Positions 25,834 through 36,788 of a stretch of 64,000 bases of DNA are shown here, in pieces. Below the pieces are notes generated by a model, which did not search any database, was not told where the DNA came from, and was given only the letters and a program-made list of their open reading frames with translations. A program made the translations under genes and the position numbers. How positions within the stretch are numbered: the first letter of the stretch is position 1; every line of letters starts with the position of its first letter. Origin of the DNA: Achromobacter pulmonis (GTDB lineage: Bacteria > Pseudomonadota > Gammaproteobacteria > Burkholderiales > Burkholderiaceae_B); contig NZ_CADIJV010000012.1 of NCBI RefSeq assembly GCF_902859765.1, positions 1-64,000 on the forward strand. Reading direction: 5' to 3'.

Positions 25834-26850
25834 CTACGGCATCACGGCCGTGGCCGGCGCGTGCTGGAAGGTGAAGCTGTCGGCGTAGACGTGGTCCAGG
25901 CTGGCGCCGCGCCCTGCCAGCAACGCGGTCGCCTCGCTGATCATGGCCGGCGCGCCGCACAGGTAGAAGGCGTGCTCGGACAGGTCGGCATGGTCCGCCA
26001 CCACCGCCTGCTGCACGTGGCCACGCCGTCCCCGCCAATCGGCACTGGCGCGCGACAGCACCGGAACGAAGTTGAATTCGTACAGGCGCCCGGCCCAACT
26101 CTCGATCACGTCGCGCAGATACAGGTCGGCCTCGGTGCGCATGCCCCAGTAGAGCGTCACCGGCGGGCAATCTTCATTGTCCAGCAGCGATTCCAGGATG
26201 GCCTTGATCGGCGCGATGCCCGTGCCAGTGGCCATCATGATCATGGGCCGCCAGTCTTGCTCGTGATAGCTGAACACCCCCAGCGGCGCTTCGATCTCGA
26301 GCGTCGCGCCAGGCCGTGCCTGGCCCAGCCAATGATCGGTATAGCGGCCGCCGGGAATGCGCCGCACATGGAAATCGAGCCGGTTGGCGGCCGGCGCCGA
26401 CGCCATCGAGAAGCTGCGGGTGGCGCCGTCGGGCAGCACCACGTTCATGTACTGGCCGGGCGCATAGTCCAGCGGCGTGTCCGGCGGCAGCGCCAGCGTC
26501 AGGTGGATGACGTCGTCGCACAGCGCCGTGATCTCCTGCACGCTGGCCGCCAGGCGGCGGGGCTCGGCGAACGGGCGCGGATTCGGCACGCTGATGCACA
26601 GGTCGCCGCAAGGCCGCGCCTGGCAGGCCAGGGCATAACCCTGCGCCGCCTCTTGCGGCGTCAGCGCCATGGGGAATTCCTCATACGTGACGGCGCCTTC
26701 GGCCAGCTTGACGCGGCAGGTGCCGCAGCCGCCGAAGGTACATTCGTGCGGCAGCCGGATCGCGGCGCGCTCGGCCGCCTGCAACACGGATTCATCCGGT
26801 TCGACCATGAAGGCCTGTCCGGTTTCGAGGATCTGCACGCGATATGCCAT
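25834..26850 (-). CDS. [2Fe-2S]/FAD/NAD oxidoreductase (oxygenase reductase type)
   Basis: A 338-residue electron-transfer protein with the order ferredoxin - FAD domain - NAD domain. Plant-type cluster ligands are Cys37, Cys42, Cys45 and Cys76 (HECTFGGCGTC and LACQ). FAD binding shows as RSFSMASAP, NAD binding as ATGTGIAPIKAI, and the C-terminal FYLCGAPAMI block is typical. Databases often label such proteins CDP-6-deoxy-delta-3,4-glucoseen reductase, but the same layout serves ring-hydroxylating and soluble oxygenases. It lies 13 bp behind the GlcG-like gene. In this locus it is the natural electron source for the two free ferredoxins and the diiron protein at 33-34 kb; that role is inferred. 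Confidence 0.88.
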   Translation of the reverse strand: MAYRVQILETGQAFMVEPDESVLQAAERAAIRLPHECTFGGCGTCRVKLAEGAVTYEEFPMALTPQEAAQGYALACQARPCGDLCISVPNPRPFAEPRRLAASVQEITALCDDVIHLTLALPPDTPLDYAPGQYMNVVLPDGATRSFSMASAPAANRLDFHVRRIPGGRYTDHWLGQARPGATLEIEAPLGVFSYHEQDWRPMIMMATGTGIAPIKAILESLLDNEDCPPVTLYWGMRTEADLYLRDVIESWAGRLYEFNFVPVLSRASADWRGRRGHVQQAVVADHADLSEHAFYLCGAPAMISEATALLAGRGASLDHVYADSFTFQHAPATAVMP

Positions 26851-26863
26851 GACCGCCAGCCGC

Positions 26864-27343
26864 CTATTTCTTGATGTCGGCCTGCACCAGCACTTTCATG
26901 CCGCGCGGCTCCAGCAGTTCGGCCAGCGCGGTCAGCGCCGCCAGCCCCGCCTGGGTATCCTGCTCGCCATTGCCGCCGCTCAGGCCGACGCCGCCGATCA
27001 CCTCGTCATTGACCACGATCGGAAAGCCGCCCACGAACGCGGCGAACTTGCCCTCGAAGCTCCACTGGATGCCAAAGGCCTCATTGCCCGGCAGGGCGGG
27101 GCCGTTGGGCGGGGTCGTGAACAGGTGCGTGGAGCGCTTGTGCCCGGCCGCCGTGAAGGCCTTGTTCCAGGCGATCTGCGGGCCGGTGATGCGGGCGCCG
27201 TCCATGCGTTCCAGCGCGATCGGATAGCCGCCATCGTCGACGATGCATACCGATTCGAGCACGCCGATCTGCTCCGAACGGGCTATGGCCGCGCGCACCA
27301 TGAGACGCGCTTCTTCGAGTTCCAGGCGATATATCTGCTTCAT
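26864..27343 (-). CDS. GlcG/HbpS-like (DUF336) protein
   Basis: A 159-residue protein of the haem-degrading/GlcG family: MKQIYRLELEEARLMVRAAIARSEQIGV, CIVDDGGYPIALERMDGARI, and the Gly-rich end GGFPIVVNDEVIGGVGLSGGNGEQD. Members bind haem or cobalamin, or act as small accessory proteins in oxidative pathways such as glycolate or diol use. GGAGCAAGGAC precedes the ATG. It lies 21 bp behind the aldehyde dehydrogenase and 13 bp before the reductase, so it belongs to the same operon. Confidence 0.87.
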   Translation of the reverse strand: MKQIYRLELEEARLMVRAAIARSEQIGVLESVCIVDDGGYPIALERMDGARITGPQIAWNKAFTAAGHKRSTHLFTTPPNGPALPGNEAFGIQWSFEGKFAAFVGGFPIVVNDEVIGGVGLSGGNGEQDTQAGLAALTALAELLEPRGMKVLVQADIKK

Positions 27344-27364
27344 GTCCTTGCTCCAGGTGGGCCG

Positions 27365-28825
27365 TCAGCCGGCGCGGTAGACGGTCTTGATCTGCGTGTA
27401 GAACTCCAATCCGACGCGGCCCGATTCGCGGAACGTCGAGGTGCTGGAGCTTTTCAGGCCGCCGAACGGGGCGTTGATGAGGTTGCCGGTGGTGGTGCGG
27501 TTGATCTTGACGGTGCCGGCCTGGATGTCGCGGGCAAAGCGATGGGCATAGCGCGCATCCGTGGTGGCGATGGCGGCCGACAGACCGTACTCGGTGTCGT
27601 TGGCGCAGGCGATGGCCTCGTCGTAGCCATCCACCGCGATCAGCGCCAGCACCGGGCCGAAGATTTCCTCGCGCGCGATCCGCATCTGCTGCGTCACGTC
27701 GGCGAACAGGGCCGGCGTCACGAAATAGCCGTGGTCGAAGCCCGGGCCTTGCAGGCGCTCGCCGCCGGTCAGGTGGGTCGCTTCCTGCTTGCCCAACGCG
27801 ATATAGCTCAGCACCGTATCGAGCTGCTTGCGCGTGGCCAGCGGCCCCAGGTCGAAATTGCCGTCCAGGCCGTTGCCGATGGTCAGCTTGCCCATGCGCG
27901 CCAGCAGCTTGTCGGTGAACGCCGCCATCACCTTGCGGTCGACCAGCAGCCGGCTGGTGCCGGTGCAGGCCTGGCCGCTGAGCGAAAAGCCGCCCTTGAC
28001 CGCCAGATCCACCGCGCGGTCCAGGTCCGCGTCCGCCAGCACGATCAGCGGGTTCTTGCCGCCCAGTTCCATCTGCGTGCGCGTGGTCAGACCGGCGCCG
28101 CGGTGGATCTGTTCACCGGCGGCGGTCGAGCCGGTGAAGGAGATGGCGCGCACCGCCGGCGCGGTGGTGATGGCCTGGCCCACCTGCGAGGCCGGGCCGG
28201 TGAGGAAATTCAGCACCCCGGGCGGCAGGCCGGCGTCGACAAACGCCTCGGCCAGCCGGTAACCGCTCAATGGCGCATCGGATGAGGGCTTGAACACCAC
28301 CGTGTTGCCGGTGATGAGCGCCGGCGCGATCTTGCGGGCCGGAATCGAGATGGGGAAATTCCATGGCGAGATCACCGTGACCACGCCCAGCGGTTCGCGC
28401 TGGCTGTAGACCACCATGTCGGGATCGTCATTGACGAAGGTCTCGCCCGTGAACGACTGCCCCTCCACGGCGTAGAAACGCAGGGTCTGGGCCGAGCGCA
28501 GCACTTCGTCGCGCGCCAGCCCGAGGCTCTTGCCTTCCTCGCGGGTCAATTCCCGCGCCACGCTGTCGGCCCGGTCTTCCAGGATCTGGGCCGCGCGAAA
28601 CAGGATGGCGGCGCGCTTGGAGATCGGCGTGTCGCGCCAGGCGGCGAACGCGTTGGCGGCGGCCGCCACCGCGCGGGCGGCATCGGCCGCGTCCGATTGC
28701 TGAAAGTGCCCCACCACGTCCGACGTGTCGGCGGGGTTCAGGTTGGGCGCCGTAGCGCCCGAGGCGCACGCCACCCATTCACCGCCGATGTAGTTGAGAA
28801 ATGCCTGCTGCGAGAGATCGTCCAC
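27365..28825 (-). CDS. NAD(P)-dependent aldehyde dehydrogenase (semialdehyde dehydrogenase-like)
   Basis: About 486 residues from a GTG start (VDDLSQQAFLNYIGGEW), preferred because AAGGA lies at a workable distance and family homology begins there; the open frame extends to an ATG at 28894, but that ATG touches the GTATAC site. Motifs: SPWNFPISIPARKIAPAL, FTGSTAAGEQI, MELGGKNPLIVLADADLD and the catalytic Cys in GQACTGTSR. Overall pattern is closest to 2-oxoglutarate-semialdehyde dehydrogenases (DTPISKRAAILFRAA, EVLRSAQTLRFYAVEGQ). It presumably oxidises an aldehyde produced by the pathway of this locus. Confidence 0.9.
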   Translation of the reverse strand: MDDLSQQAFLNYIGGEWVACASGATAPNLNPADTSDVVGHFQQSDAADAARAVAAAANAFAAWRDTPISKRAAILFRAAQILEDRADSVARELTREEGKSLGLARDEVLRSAQTLRFYAVEGQSFTGETFVNDDPDMVVYSQREPLGVVTVISPWNFPISIPARKIAPALITGNTVVFKPSSDAPLSGYRLAEAFVDAGLPPGVLNFLTGPASQVGQAITTAPAVRAISFTGSTAAGEQIHRGAGLTTRTQMELGGKNPLIVLADADLDRAVDLAVKGGFSLSGQACTGTSRLLVDRKVMAAFTDKLLARMGKLTIGNGLDGNFDLGPLATRKQLDTVLSYIALGKQEATHLTGGERLQGPGFDHGYFVTPALFADVTQQMRIAREEIFGPVLALIAVDGYDEAIACANDTEYGLSAAIATTDARYAHRFARDIQAGTVKINRTTTGNLINAPFGGLKSSSTSTFRESGRVGLEFYTQIKTVYRAG

Positions 28826-28886
28826 GGAGGTTGTTCCTTTGCCGGGCTGGCCGGAATGCCCGGAAATTGGCCGTCTTAGGTAATTT

Positions 28887-28901
28887 CTGAACATTGTATA
28901 C
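28887..28901 (-). promoter_or_regulatory. GTATAC-type operator/promoter site of the aldehyde dehydrogenase operon
   Basis: CTGAACATTGTATAC. The same 15 bases, with two changes, lie before the diiron-protein operon (34211-34225). On the coding strand it reads GTATACAATGTTCAG, with TACAAT as a possible -10. It is about 60-75 bp ahead of the GTG start. The local GntR/FCD regulator is the likely binder, by inference. Confidence 0.6.
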
Positions 28902-28943
28902 TTTAATCCGTTTGATTCGATCCACGTAAACCCGAACCCGCCC

Positions 28944-30476
28944 TCAGCCCCAGATCAGCACGGCGCAGATGGTGGACACGCATAGCGCCAGCACGACGGG
29001 CAATAGCAGCGCCCGCACCAGCGACAACACATGCACCCGCGCGAACCCCGCCACCGCGATCAGCGATGACCAGGCGATCAGCGTGCCGCCGCCGGTCCAG
29101 ACCGCGCCCATCTGCCCGACCGCCGCCAGGGTCGCCGGGTCCACACCTACCACCGGTCCGAGCGCGCCCGAGAGCGTGCCGGTCAACGGCAGGCCGGCGA
29201 AGCCCGACCCGTCAATGCCGGTGATCATGCCCACCAGCAACACGCCGAACGCCACCAGGAAGTGGTTTTCCGGAATCAGGTGCTGCCCGGCCGAAATCAC
29301 TTCGAACAGCAGGCCCGGCGCCTGCGCTTGCGGCATGCCCAGAATCTGCGCGGCGGTCTCGTTGGCGCCGATGAAGAAAAACCCCGCGATGGGCAACACC
29401 GAGCCCATTGCCTTGAAGGCGAACACGAAACCATCGGTGACGTGCTCGGGGCAGACGTCGAGCATCTTGCGCGGCCCCTCGGCGGCCAGCGTCACCAGCA
29501 TCATCACCACGAACGCCACACCGCCCACCAGCGCCGCCGCGTCGCCGCCGCGCAGGGCCGGCAGCGCCGGGAACAGCCGCGGCAGCACCATCACCGCGAT
29601 CACGCCCAGGAAAGCCAGCGGCGTCACCACCGCGAACACCCGCGACCAGCGCACCCGGCGTCGCTCCTCGTCGTCCAGCCCGGGGCCGCGCGGCAGCGCC
29701 GGGTTGGCGCCCATGGTGCCGCGCGCCAGCTCGGCCTTGTCGAACGAACCGGAATGCTCGATCTCGGCCAGGCTGCCGTCCTGCGCCCGCGCCTGCCAGG
29801 CCGACAACAGGCGCGCGTCGGCCGGCACGATGTGCTTGCGTATCAACAGATAGGCCGCCGTCAACGCCACCGCTCCGGTGATCAGCGACAGCACCAGCGC
29901 CCGGTCCGCCACCACCGCGGCGCTGACGGCGGCGCCGGCAGCCTTGGCGCTGATGCCCGGCGCCACGCCGATCACGTAGTCCGACGACAGCGCCATGCCC
30001 TGCCCGGCGATGGCGATCGCCATGGCCCCCGCCAGCGGCGGCAGCCCGGCCGCGATGGCCGCGGGCAGCAGGATCGCCGACACCAGCGGCACCGCCGGCG
30101 TGGGCCAGAAGAACAGCGAGATCACATACGTACAGAGGGCGATGATGATGAACGACGAGTGCCCGCCGCGCATCACCCGCCGGAATGGCTGCACCATGCG
30201 CACGTCCGCCTGCAGCGTCTTGAGCGCATTGAGCAGGGCGGTCATGAAAGTGATCACCAAGAAAATATTGAAGAGCTCTTTGGCGGCCACGAAGCTGGCC
30301 GAGAAAATCCCGATCAGCGCGCTGATCGGATTGCCGGTGATGGCCAGCACGACCAGGAAAGTGCCGATCACCGACGGCACCACCACATTGGCCCGCAGAA
30401 TCATCGTCAGGATGATCGCGGCGACGCTGATCAGGTACATCCAGTGAGCGGCGTTGAGCACGACGTCCGATTGCAT
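28944..30476 (-). CDS. Polytopic membrane permease (ion transporter superfamily-like, probable organic anion uptake)
   Basis: A 510-residue integral membrane protein with about 12 hydrophobic segments, e.g. WMYLISVAAIILTMILRANVVV, VIGTFLVVLAITGNPISALIGIFSASF, FIIIALCTYVISLFFWPTPAVPLVSAILLPAAIAAGLPPLAGA, and the paired TGIDGSGFAGLPLTG and AVWTGGGTLIAWSSL re-entrant-like loops. The layout resembles DcuC/CitM-type carriers, but I cannot name the family with certainty. A cytoplasmic loop of about 65 residues lies near the middle. AAGGGGAATAGCGC precedes the ATG. Its promoter overlaps a GTATAC site, so it is probably coregulated with the diiron locus and may import its substrate. Confidence 0.75.
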   Translation of the reverse strand: MQSDVVLNAAHWMYLISVAAIILTMILRANVVVPSVIGTFLVVLAITGNPISALIGIFSASFVAAKELFNIFLVITFMTALLNALKTLQADVRMVQPFRRVMRGGHSSFIIIALCTYVISLFFWPTPAVPLVSAILLPAAIAAGLPPLAGAMAIAIAGQGMALSSDYVIGVAPGISAKAAGAAVSAAVVADRALVLSLITGAVALTAAYLLIRKHIVPADARLLSAWQARAQDGSLAEIEHSGSFDKAELARGTMGANPALPRGPGLDDEERRRVRWSRVFAVVTPLAFLGVIAVMVLPRLFPALPALRGGDAAALVGGVAFVVMMLVTLAAEGPRKMLDVCPEHVTDGFVFAFKAMGSVLPIAGFFFIGANETAAQILGMPQAQAPGLLFEVISAGQHLIPENHFLVAFGVLLVGMITGIDGSGFAGLPLTGTLSGALGPVVGVDPATLAAVGQMGAVWTGGGTLIAWSSLIAVAGFARVHVLSLVRALLLPVVLALCVSTICAVLIWG

Positions 30477-30518
30477 GCGCTATTCCCCTTGTCTACGTGG
30501 CTGTTAAGTCGCCACGTC

Positions 30519-30550
30519 GGTATACTATATTTCGTTGTGCGCTATACCAA
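30519..30550 (-). promoter_or_regulatory. Promoter of the permease gene with overlapping GGTATA/TATACC inverted pair
   Basis: On the minus strand TTGGTA (30545-30550) and TAGTAT (30522-30527) form a -35/-10 pair with a 17-base spacer. GGTATAC at 30519-30525 overlaps the -10 and TATACC at 30543-30548 overlaps the -35, so a bound repressor would block polymerase directly. Confidence 0.6.
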
Positions 30551-30591
30551 TTGAAATATGCAGTGCTTAGGGAAAGCGATAATTCTGAAAA

Positions 30592-30611
30592 TTCCATGAA
30601 TATTCGTGGAA
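30592..30611. promoter_or_regulatory. 20-bp near-perfect palindrome
   Basis: TTCCATGAATATTCGTGGAA has one mismatch over two 10-bp arms. It lies midway between two divergent permease genes in an unusually AT-rich stretch, so it is probably a dimeric regulator site. Its binder is unknown. Confidence 0.65.
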
Positions 30612-30623
30612 AATCAGCGCATT

Positions 30624-30661
30624 ATGTTGGGGCATCGGCCCAATGTTGGTGCATCGCCCAT
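30624..30661. repeat. Tandem 19-bp imperfect direct repeat
   Basis: ATGTTGGGGCATCGGCCC and ATGTTGGTGCATCGCCC lie head to tail with a 19-base period (copies at 30624-30642 and 30643-30661). The second copy includes TTGGTG, a possible -35 of the TauE-like gene. Likely regulatory. Confidence 0.6.
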
Positions 30662-30677
30662 TCTTCTATAGACTATC

Positions 30678-30683
30678 GTATAC
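30678..30683 (+). promoter_or_regulatory. GTATAC site at the start of the TauE-like gene
   Basis: ATCGTATACAAAAAG lies 20 bp before the ATG and close to the expected transcription start of a TTGGTG-N17-TAGACT promoter (30646-30674). It shares its core with the other GTATAC sites of the locus. Confidence 0.5.
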
Positions 30684-30702
30684 AAAAAGACGCGACATCG
30701 GC

Positions 30703-31440
30703 ATGGCAAACTACCTTCCGGATTTCTGGCATTACGCCGCCATGGCCGCGGTGGTGTTCGGCGCGGCGCTGGCACAGGGCGTGGGCGGCATCGGCTTCGC
30801 CATGTTCGCCGCGCCGGTGGCGGCGTTGTGCTTCCCGCAACTCGCGCCGGGGCCGCTATTGACCCTGGGCGGCTTCATTTCCCTGCTGACCGCGCTGCGC
30901 GAACGCGCCGCCATCGACTGGCCAGCGGTCGCCTACGCCCTGGGCGGACGCGCCGCCGGCACGCTCATCGCCATCTACGCCATGGCGCGCTTCGCGCCGC
31001 AGACATTGGGACTGTTGTTCGCCGCCATGATCCTGGCGGCAGTCGCGCTCAGCGTGGCCGGGCTGCGGTTTACCGCCACGCCCGGACGCGTCTCGGGCGC
31101 GGGCGTGGCCTCGGGCATCATGGGCACCATGACCTCGGTCGGCGCCCCGCCGATCGCCCTGGTGCTGCAGCACACTGAACCGGCGCGGCTGCGCGCCACG
31201 CTCGGCATGGTGCTGTTCCTGGGCTCGATCTTCTCGCTGGCCATGCTGGCCTGGGCGCGCCGCTACACCGGCTACCACGCCGGCCTGGCCCTGAGCCTGG
31301 CGCCTTTCCTGCTGGCGGGATTCGCGGTTTCGGGGCGCCTGCGCCATCGGCTGCCGCCGCGCGCCGTGCGCGCCGTGCTGCTGGCGGCCTGCGCCCTGGG
31401 CGCGCTGGGCGTGATCGGCAAGGCCCTGTGGGCCGGCTGA
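30703..31440 (+). CDS. TauE/SafE family permease
   Basis: A 245-residue membrane protein with about eight hydrophobic segments in two repeats, the usual TauE/SafE form: AAMAAVVFGAALAQGVGGIGFAMFAAPVAALCFP in the first half and SGAGVASGIMGTMTSVGAPPIALVLQH in the second. The start MANYLPDFWHYA is chosen; an earlier in-frame ATG would place the GTATAC site and promoter inside the gene. Family members move sulfite, sulfoacetate or organic acid anions across the inner membrane. Here it may export or import an acid of the diiron pathway. The GntR gene follows on the same strand 77 bp later. Confidence 0.85.
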   Translation: MANYLPDFWHYAAMAAVVFGAALAQGVGGIGFAMFAAPVAALCFPQLAPGPLLTLGGFISLLTALRERAAIDWPAVAYALGGRAAGTLIAIYAMARFAPQTLGLLFAAMILAAVALSVAGLRFTATPGRVSGAGVASGIMGTMTSVGAPPIALVLQHTEPARLRATLGMVLFLGSIFSLAMLAWARRYTGYHAGLALSLAPFLLAGFAVSGRLRHRLPPRAVRAVLLAACALGALGVIGKALWAG

Positions 31441-31476
31441 GGTCCGCGTGACCCGCCGCCGGCGCGCCGCCCGGTA

Positions 31477-31494
31477 ATACAATGAAGACTGTAT
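31477..31494 (+). promoter_or_regulatory. ATACA-N8-TGTAT inverted repeat before the GntR gene
   Basis: The arms ATACA and TGTAT flank 8 bases ahead of the preferred GntR start, and TACAAT within it could be the -10. It is related to the GTATAC sites and would suit autoregulation. Confidence 0.4.
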
Positions 31495-31517
31495 CCATTC
31501 CGCCAGACCTGCTCGCC

Positions 31518-32234
31518 ATGACCACTACGCCCGTCAGCCCGCAAGCCGTAGACACCCAGTCATCTGCCCCGCTGAAAATCGGCGAGCAGCATCCGCAGTT
31601 GTTCGCGGTCATCCGCGACAAGCTGCGCGAGCGCATCCTCAGCGGTGAATTCACACCTGGCGACCGCCTGGTCGAAGGGCGGCTGTCCGAGGAGATGGGC
31701 GTGTCGCGCATCCCGGTGCGCGAGGCGCTGCGGGCGCTGGCGGCCGAAGGCCTGGTCACCATCGAACCGCGCCGCGGCGCGTCGGTCTCGGTGCTGTCGG
31801 ACGCGGTGGCCTATGACATGGTGGAAGTGCGCGCCACGCTCGAGGGCCTGAACGCCAAGCTGGCGGCCCAGCGCCGCGATAACGAAACGGTCGAGCGCCT
31901 GCAGGCATTCCTGCGCGAGGGCGCCGAGGCCGCGCGCAGCGAGCAGTTGGACAAGTTCCTGGCGCTGAATTCGCAATTCCACGAAATGCTGGCCACCATC
32001 GGCGGCAATGTGGTGCTGACCGACCTGATGCGTTCGTTGCGCGACCGCACCGCGCTGCTGTTCGCGCCCAGCAACATGCACCGCGCCAAGCAGAACTGGG
32101 ACGAGCACTCGCAGATCCTGAACGCCGTCATCGCCGGCAACGGCGACCTGGCCGCGCTATTGGCCAGCCAGCACGTGCATAACGCCGCCAAGGCCTACAC
32201 CGACACGCGCCAGGCGCATTCGTCGGCCGCCTGA
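31518..32234 (+). CDS. GntR family transcriptional regulator (FCD subfamily)
   Basis: A 238-residue regulator (start MTTTPVSPQAVD preferred; another ATG is 12 codons upstream, inside the putative operator). The winged helix is at LFAVIRDKLRERILSGEFTPGDRLVEGRLSEEMGVSRIPVREALRALAAEGLV, and the all-helical FCD effector domain follows, with metal-binding His candidates in LNSQFHEMLATIG, WDEHSQILNAVIAG and LASQHVHNAA. It sits in the middle of the diiron/ferredoxin locus and is the only regulator in it, so it is the best candidate for the shared GTATAC sites. FCD regulators commonly answer to small organic acids, often as repressors. Confidence 0.92.
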   Translation: MTTTPVSPQAVDTQSSAPLKIGEQHPQLFAVIRDKLRERILSGEFTPGDRLVEGRLSEEMGVSRIPVREALRALAAEGLVTIEPRRGASVSVLSDAVAYDMVEVRATLEGLNAKLAAQRRDNETVERLQAFLREGAEAARSEQLDKFLALNSQFHEMLATIGGNVVLTDLMRSLRDRTALLFAPSNMHRAKQNWDEHSQILNAVIAGNGDLAALLASQHVHNAAKAYTDTRQAHSSAA

Positions 32235-32250
32235 GGGCGGCGCCGCGCCA

Positions 32251-32595
32251 TCAGGGTATCGCCGGCGCCGGCTGGCTGCTGGCGCCGTCCACCACCACGC
32301 CCTTGCCGTCACGCACCACCCACGATACCGCCACGTCGCCCAGCACGAAAGTCTGGCAGGCCATGCGGTAGCCGGCCTCGAAGTCCTCGGGCCGCAGGTG
32401 CTTGCGCTCCTTGGGTTTGATGGCGTCGGTGTTTTCCACCCCCTGTTCGATGCGGCATTTGCAGGTGCCGCACAGGCCGCCGCCGCACTTGAAGGGGATG
32501 CCGCCCTGCTCCTTGAGCGACACCCGCAGCAAGTTGCTGTTCTCGGGCGCCTGGGCCACCTTGCCGCCATTCGATAGAAACGTAATCTTGACCAT
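32251..32595 (-). CDS. Plant-type [2Fe-2S] ferredoxin (second of two)
   Basis: A 114-residue ferredoxin with cluster ligands Cys37, Cys42, Cys45 (FKCGGGLCGTCKC) and Cys80 (GYRMACQTF). About 30 residues follow the last ligand (AVSWVVRDGKGVVVDGASSQPAP). It is the last gene of the diiron operon, 7 bp behind the 112-residue unknown, and convergent with the GntR gene. It differs clearly from the other ferredoxin of the operon, which suggests separate redox partners or potentials. Confidence 0.92.
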   Translation of the reverse strand: MVKITFLSNGGKVAQAPENSNLLRVSLKEQGGIPFKCGGGLCGTCKCRIEQGVENTDAIKPKERKHLRPEDFEAGYRMACQTFVLGDVAVSWVVRDGKGVVVDGASSQPAPAIP

Positions 32596-32602
32596 ATGCT
32601 GC

Positions 32603-32941
32603 TCACTGCTCCGCGACGGGGCCGGGACGCCGCGTCAAGGTGGTTTGCATGCTGCCGAAGCGGCTCAGGTGCGCCAGCTCGCGGCGCGCGGCCTCGAGCG
32701 TGGCGAACGCGTCCAGGAACTTGGACGGCACGCGGTTGACGATATAGGGCGGGGTTTCCTCGGTGACCAGCAGGCGCGCCGGCCCGTGCAGGCGGGCAAT
32801 GCTGAACACGGCGCGCGTCCTGCCATCGCAGGCGTAGTCATAGGTCTCGACGATCTCGGCCTGCGCGTCCACCTCGGTGCGGTACACGCCGGGCTTGGAC
32901 GTCAGGATCACGAACACGGCGTCATTCGCGTCGCGGGTCAT
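32603..32941 (-). CDS. Uncharacterised 112-residue protein between two ferredoxins
   Basis: I do not recognise a family. It is a soluble alpha/beta-looking protein: AVFVILTSKPGVYRTEVDAQAEIVETYDYACDGRTRAVFSIARL followed by ARLLVTEETPPYIVNRVPSKFLDAFATLEAARRELAHL. There is one Cys (YACDGR) and no signal or membrane segment. AAGGAACCGCGC precedes the ATG, codon use is like its neighbours, and it is 68 bp behind one ferredoxin and 7 bp before the other, so it is a real gene of the operon. A coupling or chaperone role for the diiron protein or ferredoxins is a guess. Confidence 0.85.
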   Translation of the reverse strand: MTRDANDAVFVILTSKPGVYRTEVDAQAEIVETYDYACDGRTRAVFSIARLHGPARLLVTEETPPYIVNRVPSKFLDAFATLEAARRELAHLSRFGSMQTTLTRRPGPVAEQ

Positions 32942-33009
32942 GCGCGGTTCCTTTGCATCGGGTTGGACGGCGGCGCCGGGGCTGGTGGACGGGGAGCACG
33001 CGCGGCGCG

Positions 33010-33354
33010 CTAGGGCTGCCCGACCGTGGCCGCGGGCACGGGCACGGACGCGACCGCCACCTCGGCATCCTGGGCCAGTTCGATGTCATGGCCCAGCCAC
33101 AACTGGCAAGCCAGCCGGTAGCCCGCGTCGATGCGCTCGCCCAACTGCTTTTTTTCCTTCCAGTTCACTGGCGGCAGGTGTTCCGCGCCCGCCAGCACGC
33201 GGCAGGCACATTTGGCGCATTTGCCCATGCCACACTCGTAGCGCAGGTGCGGGAAGGGGAATTGCCGGATGCCGGCGCGGACCACCAGGTTGGCGTTGTC
33301 CGGCACCTCCCCGGTATAGGTCTGGTCGCCTTTGTGGAATACGACGGTAGGCAT
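33010..33354 (-). CDS. Plant-type [2Fe-2S] ferredoxin (first of two)
   Basis: A 114-residue ferredoxin with ligands Cys41, Cys46, Cys49 (YECGMGKCAKC) and Cys83 (GYRLACQLW), plus an extra Cys51. FPFPHLRYECGMGKCAKCACRVLAGAEHLPP is the core. A Val/Pro/Ala-rich tail follows. It lies 72 bp behind the diiron protein gene and is the probable direct electron donor to it. Confidence 0.92.
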   Translation of the reverse strand: MPTVVFHKGDQTYTGEVPDNANLVVRAGIRQFPFPHLRYECGMGKCAKCACRVLAGAEHLPPVNWKEKKQLGERIDAGYRLACQLWLGHDIELAQDAEVAVASVPVPAATVGQP

Positions 33355-33426
33355 GGATGGGTTATCCGGTTGGACCCCGCGGCGATGGCCCGCGCCAGGG
33401 CGCGGGTCGTCGCCGCGAATGGGGCA

Positions 33427-34158
33427 TCAGGCCGCCAGGCCCAGTTCCGGCAGCGCGATTTCCTGCTGCACGTAATCGGTATAGAGCGCGGTGGTATAGA
33501 GCAGACGCATCTGCGCGCCGATTTCGCAGATCTTCAGGCAACGTTGCTGCAGCTCGACCGTGTTGGCATGCTCCAGCACGATCTGGTAGCCGCGTTCACC
33601 GTGGATTTCATCGGACACGATGTGCAGGTCGAAGAATTCCACTTCCTCGTCGGTGAAGCCGTATTTTTCGCGCAAGGTCGGCGTCTGCTTGCGGTAGATC
33701 GACGGCACTTGCGATTCCAGACCCACCACCAGGCCGGCCACGGCCACGATGGGGTCTTCGCGCATCGCCACGGCATAGCACCAGCTTTGCAGGGCCCGGG
33801 TGGTGGGCGACATGTTGTCCGGATTGGTGACCCGTTCGCGGCTGGTGCCGCAGGCCTCGGCGAAACGGATCAGCAGGTCGGTATGGCGGTCGCCGCCGAT
33901 TTCCTCTTCGTACATGTTGGCCAGCAGGAAGTCCTTGGCCTCGGTGTAGGTGTCGGGCGTGCGGGCGTACAGATAGCCCAGATAGTCGGCGAACGGACCG
34001 ACATAGTGATAGTGATTCTCGGCCCAGCGCGCCAGATGCTCGCGGCTGAGCTTGCCTTCGGCCCAGGCAATGGAAAAGGGCGACGCGTTGGCGCTCTTGC
34101 CCTTGATCGCGTTTTCCAACGCGGTACGGAATTCATCTCGGTTCATCAGTTCTGCCAT
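33427..34158 (-). CDS. Heme-oxygenase-like diiron oxidase (HDO; CADD/PqqC-like fold)
   Basis: A 243-residue all-helical protein of the iron-containing redox enzyme/CADD group. All six ligands of the HDO diiron site can be placed: Glu85-x6-His92 (EEEIGGDRH), Glu148 (VGLESQ), and His179-x3-Asp183-x2-His186 (LHIVSDEIH). Spacings match those of CADD. PqqC and TenA share the fold but lack this site, so an oxygen-activating oxidase or oxygenase is expected. The start MAELMNRDEF follows TTGGAGCGCGTC. The two ferredoxins downstream supply electrons by inference. Known HDO reactions include decarboxylation (UndA), C-C cleavage with aldehyde release (BesC) and N-oxygenation (SznF); which applies here is open. 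Confidence 0.88.
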   Translation of the reverse strand: MAELMNRDEFRTALENAIKGKSANASPFSIAWAEGKLSREHLARWAENHYHYVGPFADYLGYLYARTPDTYTEAKDFLLANMYEEEIGGDRHTDLLIRFAEACGTSRERVTNPDNMSPTTRALQSWCYAVAMREDPIVAVAGLVVGLESQVPSIYRKQTPTLREKYGFTDEEVEFFDLHIVSDEIHGERGYQIVLEHANTVELQQRCLKICEIGAQMRLLYTTALYTDYVQQEIALPELGLAA

Positions 34159-34210
34159 GACGCGCTCCAAGTCTAGGTGGGAGGGGGCCGGCCGAAAACC
34201 TCGACCGATG

Positions 34211-34225
34211 CAGAACATCGTATAC
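34211..34225 (-). promoter_or_regulatory. GTATAC-type operator/promoter site of the diiron-ferredoxin operon
   Basis: CAGAACATCGTATAC shares 13 of 15 bases with the site before the aldehyde dehydrogenase operon (28887-28901). It lies about 55-65 bp ahead of the diiron gene start. On the coding strand ATCAAA stands 16 bases before GTATAC, and ATCAAA with a 15-base gap is also seen at the other site. Confidence 0.65.
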
Positions 34226-34321
34226 CGTCTACTGTTTTGATCGACTAGGGTATTCCCGTTGCCATGACTGCCAACGGGGACTGTCCCTTTGACATCAACG
34301 TGTTGGATGAAGGTGCCGAGG

Positions 34322-34350
34322 TTGGAACTCCGGGTTTACCCTGGTACAAT
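34322..34350 (+). promoter_or_regulatory. Sigma70-type promoter of the 69-residue ORF
   Basis: TTGGAA (34322-34327), a 17-base spacer and TACAAT (34345-34350) form a good -35/-10 pair. Transcription would start near 34357, about 25 bases before the small ORF. GGTACAATGAATACAC around the -10 loosely resembles the GTATAC-type sites. Confidence 0.6.
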
Positions 34351-34381
34351 GAATACACTTTCAATGCAATCCGGAAATACC

Positions 34382-34591
34382 ATGACTACCCGCCACCCCC
34401 TGGGAGACGCCCCGATCGGCCAGCAATTGCTGGCGCATTACGCCCGCCGCGATGCGGTCCGCCACGCCACGCCCCTGTTACCCTCGTCCTGGGCCGAATG
34501 TCTGGCCCCCTTCCGCAATGCGCGGCTGCGCGCGCAGGCAGCGCGCGCCGGGCAGGCTGGCGAAGGCACGCCGGTCGGTCAGGCCGGCTGA
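34382..34591 (+). CDS. Possible small protein (69 residues), divergent from the diiron operon
   Basis: Begins MTTRHPLGDAPIGQQLLAHYARRDAVRH; a basic, Ala/Arg-rich protein without membrane segment or Cys pair. The open frame begins further upstream, but the promoter at 34322-34350 places the start at this ATG; CCGGAAATACC in front offers a weak ribosome binding site. I recognise no family. The promoter and its place next to the diiron operon support it; the Arg-rich, GC-rich tail (RLRAQAARAGQAGEG) is a reason for doubt. Confidence 0.5.
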   Translation: MTTRHPLGDAPIGQQLLAHYARRDAVRHATPLLPSSWAECLAPFRNARLRAQAARAGQAGEGTPVGQAG

Positions 34592-35215: not shown

Positions 35216-36451
35216 ATGAGCGCATTCGATCCGGATGGGCGCCGACGCTTCCTGCGCCAGGCCTGCACCCTGGGCGCGACCAGCACACTGGCCGGTCACG
35301 CCCTCACCAGCCTGGCGGCCCCGGCCACCGTCACCCTGCCTTTCGCCAACGGAGAGCGCGACCTGATCGCCTACCCGCAGAAGCGCCCCCTGATCCGGCA
35401 GACCTCGCGGCCCCCGCAACTGGAAACACCGTTCGCCGTCTTCAATGAAGACCTGATCACGCCCAACGATGCCTTCTTCGTGCGCTACCACTTGGCCAAT
35501 ATTCCCACCGCCATCGACCCCGCCGCCTACCGGCTGCGCGTGGGCGGAATGGTGGCCACGCCGCTGGAACTGTCGCTGGCCGACCTGAAGCAGCAGTTCG
35601 GCGCACCGGTCGAGCTGGTGGCGGTGACCCAGTGCTCCGGCAACAGCCGCGGCTTTTTCGAGCCGCGTGTCGGTGGCGGCCAATCGGGCAACGGCGCCAT
35701 GGGCAACGCCCGCTGGCTCGGCATCCCGCTCAAGCGGGTGCTGGACAAGGCCGGCATCAAGGCTGGCGCGCGCCAGGTGACCTTCGAGGGGCTGGACCGG
35801 CCGGTGCTGCAAGGCACGCCCGAGTTCATCAAGGCGCTGGACGCGGCCCACGCGCTCGACGGCGAGGTGATGCTGGCCTATGCCATGAACGGCGCCGACC
35901 TGCCCATGCTCAACGGCTATCCGGTGCGGCTGGTGGTGCCGGGCTATTACGGCACCTACTGGGTCAAGCACCTGGCCGACATCCAGGTGCTCGACCGGGA
36001 ATTCGACGGCTTCTGGATGCAGAAGGCCTATCGCATCCCCGACAACGACTGCGCCTGTACGCCGCCGGGCAAGGCACCCGACAAGACCCGTCCCATCGGC
36101 CGCTATAACGTGCGCAGCTTCATCACCAGCCTGGCCGATGGCGCCCGTGTGGCCAAGGGCAAGCGCGTGCCGGTGCGCGGTATCGCCTTCGACGGCGGCC
36201 AGGGCATCCGCGGCGTCCAGTTCTCCGCCGACGGCGGCAAGACCTGGCATGCCGCCAAGCTGGGCCGCGATCTGGGCCGCTATTCCTTCCGCGAATGGCA
36301 CGCCGATTTCACCCCGGCGCAAGCCGGCGCCTACCAACTGATGGCACGCGCCACCAACATGGCCGGCGAGACCCAGCCGCTGGAGGCGCGCTGGAATCCG
36401 GCCGGGTACATGCGCAATGTGGTCGAAACCGTGCGCGTCGACGCCGCCTGA
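35216..36451 (+). CDS. sorA: Sulfite oxidase-like molybdopterin enzyme, SorA type
   Basis: A 411-residue protein with a Tat leader (GRRRFLRQACTLGATSTLAGHALTSLA). The molybdopterin domain carries the molybdenum Cys140 in VTQCSGNSRGFFEPRV; GNARWLGIPLKRVLDKAGI and NGYPVRLVVPGYYGTYWVKHL are typical, and the C-terminal Mo-co dimerisation domain begins near VRGIAFDGGQGIRGVQFSADGGKTW. It should oxidise sulfite (or a related compound) in the periplasm and pass electrons to the cytochrome encoded 10 bp downstream. GAGGAGACAAGC precedes the ATG. Confidence 0.9.
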   Translation: MSAFDPDGRRRFLRQACTLGATSTLAGHALTSLAAPATVTLPFANGERDLIAYPQKRPLIRQTSRPPQLETPFAVFNEDLITPNDAFFVRYHLANIPTAIDPAAYRLRVGGMVATPLELSLADLKQQFGAPVELVAVTQCSGNSRGFFEPRVGGGQSGNGAMGNARWLGIPLKRVLDKAGIKAGARQVTFEGLDRPVLQGTPEFIKALDAAHALDGEVMLAYAMNGADLPMLNGYPVRLVVPGYYGTYWVKHLADIQVLDREFDGFWMQKAYRIPDNDCACTPPGKAPDKTRPIGRYNVRSFITSLADGARVAKGKRVPVRGIAFDGGQGIRGVQFSADGGKTWHAAKLGRDLGRYSFREWHADFTPAQAGAYQLMARATNMAGETQPLEARWNPAGYMRNVVETVRVDAA

Positions 36452-36461
36452 GGAGAGCGCC

Positions 36462-36788
36462 ATGATCCGACTCGTCCGCCTCGTCCTGGCCTTGGCCGCC
36501 GCCTGCGCCGCCACCCCCGCGCTGGCCCTGGACATCCAGCTGCCCCAGGAGACCGCCACCCTGCGCCCCGGCAGCGGCCCCGGCGCCCAGGGCGCCACCC
36601 TGTGCCTGATGTGCCATTCGGTCGACTATCTCTCGTCGCAACCGCCCATGCCGCCGGGCTTCTGGGAGGCCGAAGTCAAGAAGATGGCCGGCACCTACGG
36701 CGCGCCGATACCGGCCGAACAGGTGCCGCTCATCGTCGAATACCTGAATCAGGCCTATCCGCCGCGCGGGCCGTCCGCCAAGCCCTGA
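36462..36788 (+). CDS. sorB: Small periplasmic cytochrome c, SorB type
   Basis: A 108-residue protein with signal peptide (MIRLVRLVLALAAACAATPALA) and one haem c site, CLMCHSVDYLSSQPPMPPGFW; Met residues in the PPMPPGFW/VKKMAG region may be the sixth ligand. GGAGAGCGCC precedes the ATG and the gene follows sorA by 10 bp, the usual SorAB arrangement in which the cytochrome takes electrons from the molybdenum subunit. Confidence 0.9.
   Translation: MIRLVRLVLALAAACAATPALALDIQLPQETATLRPGSGPGAQGATLCLMCHSVDYLSSQPPMPPGFWEAEVKKMAGTYGAPIPAEQVPLIVEYLNQAYPPRGPSAKP

What the first reader, a model, noticed from the sequence alone, without database searches (positions are those of the whole stretch)
25834..34591. 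Uncharacterised diiron oxidase locus with two ferredoxins, a reductase, an aldehyde dehydrogenase, two permeases and one GntR regulator
A heme-oxygenase-like protein with all six HDO diiron ligands (Glu85, His92, Glu148, His179, Asp183, His186) is encoded with two different [2Fe-2S] ferredoxins and an unknown 112-residue protein. A [2Fe-2S]/FAD/NAD reductase, a GlcG/HbpS-like protein and a semialdehyde-dehydrogenase-like enzyme form a second operon. Two permeases and an FCD-type GntR regulator lie between, and related promoter motifs tie the parts together. This has the parts of a complete system: uptake, reductant supply, an oxygen-activating enzyme, aldehyde removal and induction. Known HDOs mostly act in biosynthesis (UndA, BesC, SznF, CADD); a catabolic HDO with a dedicated redox chain, clearing an aldehyde product, would be new to me.
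Basis: partly seen in the sequence, partly recalled or inferred. Interest (0 to 1): 0.85.

Follow-up and report, generated by a model that had tools for sequence, protein, structure and literature searches.

The report
Catabolic-looking diiron oxygenase regulon, substrate unknown
A block of about ten genes, shared by many bacteria and tied together by one regulatory DNA site, appears to encode an unstudied oxygen-using iron enzyme with its own electron supply, transporters and aldehyde removal, most likely to break down a still unknown small molecule.

Summary
The window (Achromobacter by its relatives) encodes a 243-residue heme-oxygenase-like protein (HDO) with all six diiron ligand positions, two [2Fe-2S] ferredoxins, a 112-residue orphan (P112), an FCD GntR regulator, a TauE-like and an unclassified permease, and an ALDH-DUF336-reductase operon. 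In 85 long loci HDO is with DUF336 (85), GntR (84) and the block FdA-P112-FdB (82), in 26 arrangements. In 200 genomes of one related family P112 occurs in the same 36 as the HDO orthologue. A palindrome around GTATAC lies upstream of all four inferred units in the window and of most module units elsewhere, 34-fold over background; it also marks an amidase and an ABC-transporter/isochorismatase unit. So this is very probably one regulon. Most likely it is a multicomponent HDO oxygenase of an inducible catabolic pathway for an amide-derived or nitrogenous compound, yielding an aldehyde. Substrate, reaction and the roles of P112 and DUF336 are inferred. ALDH and reductase are optional: six Acetobacteraceae loci lack both in the DNA held. 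The 2026 review describes biosynthetic HDOs without effectors; one 2026 paper calls MboAB perhaps the first HDO-redox partner pair. A well-supported new variant of a known kind.

The parts
33427..34158 (-). HDO: heme-oxygenase-like protein with 3 His/3 carboxylate diiron ligand set, 243 aa
   Evidence: PF14518 134 bits; ligands aligned to CADD 1rcw (counted by hand); ligand spacing kept in 85 of 86 copies in 85 loci
33010..33354 (-). FdA: [2Fe-2S] ferredoxin
   Evidence: PF00111 34.6 bits; Cx4Cx2C...C in 82 of 82 copies
32603..32941 (-). P112: orphan small protein between FdA and FdB; proposed effector/coupling protein (inference)
   Evidence: no family; no significant PDB match with a profile; FdA-P112-FdB adjacent and co-oriented in 82 of 82 loci that have P112; in the same 36 of 200 genomes as the HDO orthologue
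32251..32595 (-). FdB: second [2Fe-2S] ferredoxin
   Evidence: PF00111 47.8 bits; Cx4Cx2C...C in 82 of 82 copies
31482..32234 (+). FCD-type GntR regulator, probably of this regulon (start uncertain)
   Evidence: PF00392, PF07729; in 84 of 85 loci
30703..31440 (+). TauE/SafE-like permease, 245 aa; optional member
   Evidence: PF01925 66.9 bits (on the longer reading); start re-set; in 55 of 85 loci
28944..30476 (-). Perm: 510-aa membrane protein of no assigned Pfam family, proposed importer
   Evidence: no Pfam family at E<=0.001, DUF6611 at E 0.028 only; in 77 of 85 loci; in 24 of 200 genomes, all of them HDO carriers
27365..28825 (-). Aldehyde dehydrogenase, nearest NCBIfam model alpha-ketoglutaric semialdehyde dehydrogenase (below cut-off)
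   Evidence: PF00171 552 bits; NF042993 551 bits, cut-off 770; start re-set
26864..27343 (-). GlcG/HbpS-like DUF336 protein
   Evidence: PF03928 108 bits; PDB sequence relatives include EfgA 6bws and NahX 9jth; in 85 of 85 loci
25834..26850 (-). [2Fe-2S]/FAD/NAD(P)H reductase (BenC/MmoC-like architecture)
   Evidence: PF00111, PF00970, PF00175; BenC 209 bits, cut-off 430; in 73 of 85 loci
28896..28901 (.). putative operator core GTATAC upstream of ALDH operon
   Evidence: same place in 25 of 25 Achromobacter loci
30520..30525 (.). putative operator core GTATAC upstream of Perm
   Evidence: orthologous sites
30678..30683 (.). putative operator core GTATAC upstream of TauE-GntR
34220..34225 (.). 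putative operator core GTATAC upstream of HDO operon
   Evidence: orthologous sites

Best explanation
A GntR(FCD)-controlled regulon for an oxygen-dependent catabolic pathway built round a multicomponent HDO. Supported by computation: the gene set, its conservation, the shared upstream sites, the HDO ligand positions and the ferredoxin cysteines. Inferred: a small organic acid or nitrogen compound enters by Perm, TauE or, in trans, a NitT-type ABC transporter, in several lineages with hydrolysis of an amide or ester (amidase, isochorismatase-type, GGT-type or alpha/beta hydrolase). NADH electrons pass through the reductase and FdA/FdB to the diiron(II) HDO, which activates O2 and oxidises the substrate so that an aldehyde is released. 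ALDH oxidises the aldehyde. P112 works as an effector or coupling protein for HDO and the ferredoxins; the DUF336 protein binds the aldehyde or iron and protects the enzyme or cell. The regulator releases the operators when substrate or metabolite is present.
For: HDO with DUF336 85/85, GntR 84/85, FdA/P112/FdB 82/85, Perm 77/85, ALDH 77/85, reductase 73/85, in 26 different arrangements of the nine core genes. P112 and HDO orthologue in the same 36 of 200 genomes; Perm in 24 of those and in 0 of the other 164. GTATAC within 300 bp upstream of unit heads: HDO 73/73, FdA 16/16, Perm 75/77, TauE 47/49, amidase 23/25; 3.63/kb against 0.105/kb elsewhere in 60 non-Achromobacter loci, ratio 34, first of 64 palindromic hexamers (second: TATATA, 20, on 22 sites). 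In five genomes 15 of 37 rows of a longer pattern lie at this locus. In the window's own genome one of nine sites outside this locus precedes the NMT1-ABC-isochorismatase unit found beside the module in other genera. DUF336 relative EfgA is a formaldehyde sensor (PMC8153426). Distant HDO relatives lie within about 8 kb of UbiD-like and RutB/BiuH-like genes (L179) and a CoxL-type gene (L180).
Against: No substrate, product, expression or structure data. ALDH and reductase not found in the DNA held in 6 of 6 Acetobacteraceae loci (two of them with under 4 kb on one side), reductase in 0 of 3 Bradyrhizobium and 0 of 2 beta MAG loci. L060 lacks FdA, P112, FdB and GntR within 10 kb. GntR heads carry the site in only 25 of 39, OCD 11 of 19, NMT1 5 of 8, porin 2 of 4, reductase 0 of 3, GGT 0 of 2, DUF336 0 of 1. 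Genome-wide the patterns are not in clear excess: own genome 12 sites against 7 for the pattern read backwards; five genomes 37 rows against 23; a strict pattern 2 sites, both at this locus, against 4 control sites. Most sites outside the locus were not shown to be functional. The 44% relative L112 lacks FdA, P112, FdB, ALDH and reductase in its 19.9 kb and has a longer E..H spacing. No binding of GntR to the site is shown. The 2026 review says HDOs studied so far need no protein effector.
Confidence: 0.6

Rival explanations
1. The HDO opens or oxidises a nitrogen heterocycle (for example a pyrrole-, pyridine- or pyrimidine-type acid). The hydrolases act on the amides so formed, the OCD-family enzyme reduces an imine and ALDH finishes a semialdehyde. 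This is a specific form of the best explanation.
For: Hydrolases of several families appear beside the module in different lineages: amidase 25 of 85 loci, GGT 9 (one only 37% identical), isochorismatase 8, alpha/beta hydrolase 7; the amidase heads have the site in 23 of 25. A distant HDO relative (L179) lies within about 8 kb of RutB/BiuH-like and UbiD-like genes and another (L180) near a CoxL-type gene. ALDH nearest to alpha-ketoglutaric semialdehyde dehydrogenase.
Against: No ring-specific gene is conserved in the module; the ALDH, isochorismatase, UbiD and CoxL scores are below the equivalog or subfamily cut-offs; the hydrolases could equally act before HDO. The heterocycle pathways themselves are recalled.
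Confidence: 0.2
2. Oxygenolytic desulfonation: HDO releases sulfite and an aldehyde from an alkylsulfonate; TauE exports sulfite and the neighbouring SorAB oxidises it.
For: TauE-family permease in 55 of 85 loci; SorA 691 bits (cut-off 600) and SorB 96 bits (cut-off 93) at 35216-36788; NitT/Ssu-like binding protein 75 bits in Candidimonas.
Against: SorA is found in 14 of 25 long Achromobacter loci and in 0 of 60 other long loci; the TauE query finds nothing in Acetobacteraceae, Bradyrhizobium, Paraburkholderia/Caballeronia, Noviherbaspirillum and g37 loci, though one Noviherbaspirillum locus (L086) has another TauE-family gene; the Ssu score is below its cut-off of 163.5.
Confidence: 0.08
3. 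A biosynthetic or stress-protective HDO (metabolite, metallophore or oxidative-stress factor, as for most known HDOs or DtpC) with an accidental catabolic-looking neighbourhood.
For: The characterised HDOs in the review are biosynthetic (PMC13108848); DtpC is stress-linked (PMC13232832).
Against: No ATP-grasp, NRPS or ligase family was matched by the 28 distinct neighbours scanned, a part of all neighbours; an acyl-CoA-ligase-type gene does lie near the 44% relative L112. Conserved permeases, hydrolases and an FCD regulator share one upstream site.
Confidence: 0.12
4. The HDO is not an oxygenase but a PqqC/TenA-like or pABA-synthase-like enzyme.
For: Profile matches to CADD and PqqC families and TENA_THI-4 (47 bits, cut-off 22).
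Against: CADD and PqqC scores far below cut-off (99.9 of 200; 52.5 of 240); CADD Tyr27 and Lys152 (PMC13108848) align with S29 and Q158 (counted by hand), although K157 is next to Q158; six metal ligand positions kept.
Confidence: 0.03

Closest known systems
CADD/PabS p-aminobenzoate synthases (HDO superfamily)
   Same: Closest solved sequences (E about 5e-18 to 5e-17); same six ligand positions
   Different: Sacrificial Tyr27 and Lys152 positions are S29 and Q158; below the CADD family cut-off; encoded with ferredoxins and permeases
MboA/MboB mangotoxin acetylenase (PMC13185094, passages seen)
   Same: HDO with a dedicated flavin/[2Fe-2S] NAD(P)H reductase; said there to be possibly the first HDO-redox partner pair
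   Different: Biosynthetic and peptide-modifying; here two extra ferredoxins, P112, DUF336, ALDH and permeases
Bacterial multicomponent monooxygenases (ferritin-like diiron)
   Same: Works like (proposed): reductase, ferredoxin, diiron enzyme and a small accessory protein
   Different: Heme-oxygenase-like, not ferritin-like, profile; P112 matches no family searched
EfgA and other DUF336 proteins (PMC8153426, abstract and passages seen)
   Same: The GlcG-like protein is in PF03928; EfgA 6bws is a PDB sequence relative
   Different: Formaldehyde sensing is shown for EfgA; membership of the EfgA clade was not tested
DtpC of Acinetobacter (PMC13232832, passages seen)
   Same: Predicted HDO with a role outside known biosynthesis
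   Different: In an operon with katE; the word ferredoxin does not occur in the paper's main text

Membership tests
HDO superfamily | Heme-oxygenase-like domain by profile | tested here: met
   PF14518 134 bits, cut-off 28.9
HDO superfamily | 3 His/3 carboxylate ligand set at conserved positions | tested here: met
   Alignment with 1rcw (counted by hand); spacing in 85 of 86 copies; identity of CADD ligands recalled
HDO superfamily | Ligands meet in a predicted fold | not testable with these tools
   Structure prediction switched off
HDO superfamily | Binds two metals and activates O2 | not testable with these tools
   needs purified protein
CADD/pABA synthase | TIGR04305 cut-off 200 bits | tested here: not met
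   99.9 bits
CADD/pABA synthase | Sacrificial Tyr27 and Lys152 | tested here: not met
   S29 and Q158 at these places (counted alignment; K157 adjacent); residues named in PMC13108848
PqqC | TIGR02111 cut-off 240 bits | tested here: not met
   52.5 bits
HDO-redox partner pair (MboAB type) | Flavin/[2Fe-2S] reductase encoded with HDO | tested here: met
   Met in the window; reductase in 73 of 85 loci, not found near HDO in Acetobacteraceae, Bradyrhizobium, two beta MAG loci and L112
HDO-redox partner pair (MboAB type) | Partner needed for turnover | not testable with these tools
   needs enzyme assay
Bacterial multicomponent monooxygenase | Ferritin-like diiron hydroxylase | tested here: not met
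   HDO matches only PF14518 and PF03070 in Pfam at E<=0.001
Alpha-ketoglutaric semialdehyde dehydrogenase | NF042993 cut-off 770 bits | tested here: not met
   550.9 bits
DUF336/HbpS-like | PF03928 cut-off 25 bits | tested here: met
   107.6 bits

The most novel reading that the evidence does not exclude
The first catabolic HDO oxygenase: a heme-oxygenase-fold counterpart of the multicomponent monooxygenases, with two dedicated ferredoxins, a new small effector protein (P112) and a DUF336 aldehyde- or iron-binding helper, encoded as an inducible regulon spread through Beta- and Alphaproteobacteria for an amide-derived or heterocyclic substrate.
Probability: 0.45. Interest if true: 0.85.

Novelty: new variant of a known kind. 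Interest (0 to 1): 0.72.

Why it matters
Only about a dozen HDOs are validated, and the 2026 review says that those studied need no protein effector (PMC13108848). A widespread regulon with an HDO, two ferredoxins, an orphan partner and a defined upstream site gives a direct handle: regulator and gene deletions can reveal the substrate, and the parts can be tested in vitro. It would extend the family from biosynthesis to catabolism and give a function to a small protein and a permease without an assigned Pfam family, and to another DUF336 protein.

Tried and rejected
Structure prediction for P112 and HDO: not possible, so no fold search was run. Perm: no PDB relative (best E 0.49) and no significant Pfam family. 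P112 profile against PDB: best E 0.75, nothing. ALDH substrate from PDB relatives: betaine-aldehyde, semialdehyde and general aldehyde dehydrogenases, not decisive (best 60 of 188 shown). The OCD-family gene (45 of 85 loci) looked like a key enzyme, but the window's own genome has only 30-32% relatives, so it is optional. SorAB link: considered and rated low, see rivals. A strict operator pattern gave two sites in five genomes, both at this locus, but its control gave four sites; a looser one was used. The own-genome sites outside the locus were read by eye from ORFs only; several look intragenic. The substrate guesses (pyrrole or pyridine acids, sulfonates) rest partly on recalled pathways. 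Genus-to-family assignments such as Acetobacteraceae are recalled from the record titles.


Full report
What is there. The window belongs to an Achromobacter-like genome: the best matches of its HDO among named genome contigs are Achromobacter dolens, insuavis and ruhlandii at 99%. The stretch 25834-34158 holds ten genes. On the minus strand: HDO (33427-34158), FdA, P112, FdB; Perm; ALDH, DUF336, reductase. On the plus strand between them: TauE and the FCD-type GntR regulator. P112 matches no Pfam family at E<=10 and Perm only DUF6611 at E 0.028, below its cut-off. re-set the probable starts of ALDH, HDO and TauE.

Ligands. CADD's sacrificial Tyr27 and Lys152 (named in PMC13108848, passages seen) face S29 and Q158, and the CADD and PqqC profiles score below half of their cut-offs. 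So it is an HDO by sequence but by these tests neither a CADD-type pABA synthase nor PqqC. The spacing of the six residues is kept in 85 of 86 HDO copies; the exception is the 44% relative L112, which has an insertion between the first two ligands.

Conservation. A scan of genome contigs found 494 relatives; the best 80 were kept, so the set is biased to close ones. Presence by tblastn (E<=1e-4, at least 40% of the query): HDO 85, DUF336 85, GntR 84, FdA, P112 and FdB 82 each, Perm 77, ALDH 77, reductase 73, TauE 55, OCD-family enzyme 45, amidase 25, GGT 9 (one at 37%), NMT1-type binding protein 8, isochorismatase-type hydrolase 8, alpha/beta hydrolase 7, porin 4. FdA, P112 and FdB are missing in L060 (10 kb held on each side), in L070 (HDO 539 bases from the contig end) and in L112. 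The nine core genes stand in 26 different arrangements, while FdA-P112-FdB is an unbroken co-oriented block in 82 of 82 loci that have P112; so the association is not mere synteny. HDO is the best conserved part: 86-93% identity to the window in the 60 non-Achromobacter copies other than L112, against 35-55% for P112 in the 21 other rows of alignment A1.

Phylogenetic profile. The HDO search gave 37 matches, 36 at E below 1e-140 and one partial 36% match. The P112 profile matched 36 genomes, the same 36. Perm matched 24, all among the 36. The 12 HDO carriers without a Perm match belong to one genus (g37); in the two of these that I fetched (L158, L159) the locus has the amidase gene, and in L159 an MFS transporter of aromatic-acid/H+ symporter type (222 bits, cut-off 419) stands between HDO and the amidase. 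An even sample of 398 genomes of the phylum gave 5 with a match at E<=1e-20, the window's own included, so the gene is patchy.

One regulon. GTATAC occurs 7 times in the window (1.43 expected, 0 of 100 shuffles as many). Four of these lie upstream of HDO, TauE-GntR, Perm and ALDH. In the 85 loci the hexamer lies within 300 bp upstream of unit heads for HDO 73 of 73, FdA 16 of 16, Perm 75 of 77, TauE 47 of 49, amidase 23 of 25, ALDH 8 of 10, OCD 11 of 19, GntR 25 of 39, NMT1 5 of 8, porin 2 of 4, reductase 0 of 3, GGT 0 of 2, DUF336 0 of 1. In the 60 non-Achromobacter loci its density is 3.63 per kb in such regions and 0.105 per kb elsewhere, the highest ratio (34) of the 64 palindromic hexamers; the next, TATATA, has 20 on 22 sites, as AT-rich words favour promoters. 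The aligned sites extend to about WWNAYNGTATACNRTNWW. All 25 Achromobacter loci have a site just upstream of ALDH. L112 keeps two sites at its HDO promoter. A longer pattern in five whole genomes gave 37 rows, 15 of them (12 distinct places) at this locus; the pattern read backwards gave 23 rows. A strict pattern gave two sites, both at this locus, against four control sites. In the window's own genome 12 distinct short-pattern sites exist (control 7); three are here, and one stands 271 bases upstream of the start of similarity of an NMT1-ABC-ABC-isochorismatase unit 62-72% identical to the one beside the module in Candidimonas. Genome-wide, then, the patterns are only mildly in excess; their concentration at this locus is what stands out. 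That the GntR protein binds these sites is inferred from its constant presence.

Mechanism. The parts fit an inducible pathway: uptake, hydrolysis of an amide or ester, NADH to reductase to ferredoxin to diiron enzyme with O2, and aldehyde oxidation. Hydrolases of several families stand beside the module in different lineages, and the amidase and the isochorismatase unit often carry the site; this suggests an amide-bound precursor or an amide product. DUF336 relatives include EfgA, shown to bind formaldehyde (PMC8153426, abstract and passages seen), and NahX; the EfgA paper also notes DUF336 genes in propanediol and chloroaniline pathways. P112 as an effector is a guess from its place between the ferredoxins and its strict co-occurrence. 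The operon in the six Acetobacteraceae loci is Perm-HDO-FdA-P112-FdB-DUF336 beside a GntR gene; ALDH and reductase are not in the DNA held there (two of the six have under 4 kb on one side), so electrons and aldehyde removal come from elsewhere in those genomes or the product is not an aldehyde.

Distant relatives. HDO relatives at 36-38% (L179, L181) and a stretch with three copies at 28-32% (L180) show no match to the ferredoxins, P112 or DUF336 in the 18-19 kb read. L179 has UbiD-like and RutB/BiuH-like genes and L180 a CoxL-type gene, all below family cut-offs. This hints that catabolic HDOs are a wider group; it is a lead only.

Literature. Nine searches of the held library listed no paper on this gene set; four of them found nothing at all, and one search listed only 25 of 401. 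Of the review PMC13108848 I read sections 4 and 11 and passages: it counts about a dozen validated HDOs, says that those studied need no protein effector, and has no occurrence of 'ferredoxin' in its main text. PMC13185094 (passages) presents MboAB as possibly the first HDO with a dedicated redox partner. PMC13232832 (passages) describes DtpC, a stress-linked predicted HDO. Most subscription papers are not in the library, so prior work may exist.

Verdict. It is best described as a new variant of the HDO kind: a multicomponent, regulon-encoded HDO.

Noticed in passing
window 35216-36788 (+): SorA/SorB sulfite dehydrogenase pair (691 and 96 bits, above cut-offs) about 1 kb from the HDO promoter; SorA in 14 of 25 long Achromobacter loci and 0 of 60 others.
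   Followed up: partly
L174:5956-9555 (own genome): NMT1-ABC-ABC-isochorismatase unit elsewhere in the genome with a GTATAC site upstream; likely a regulon member in trans.
   Followed up: partly
L180:3197-9554: Three HDO-like genes within 6.4 kb beside a CoxL-type molybdenum hydroxylase gene (and, read by eye, a small Fe-S subunit) in an unnamed proteobacterium.
   Followed up: partly
L112:6919-8793: Next to the 44% HDO relative, a divergent Rieske-type protein and a CmcJ/NvfI-family oxidoreductase; GTATAC sites lie in the shared promoter region.
   Followed up: partly
window 34289-34591 (+): Small ORF divergent from HDO; similar DNA seen only in Achromobacter loci (query in another frame).
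   Followed up: no
L058: Cupriavidus basilensis locus with two HDO copies and two Perm copies.
   Followed up: no
L065, L071, L096, L101, L102: HDO 86-91% identical between Alphaproteobacteria and Achromobacter, suggesting horizontal spread of the module; also found on Caballeronia plasmids.
   Followed up: no
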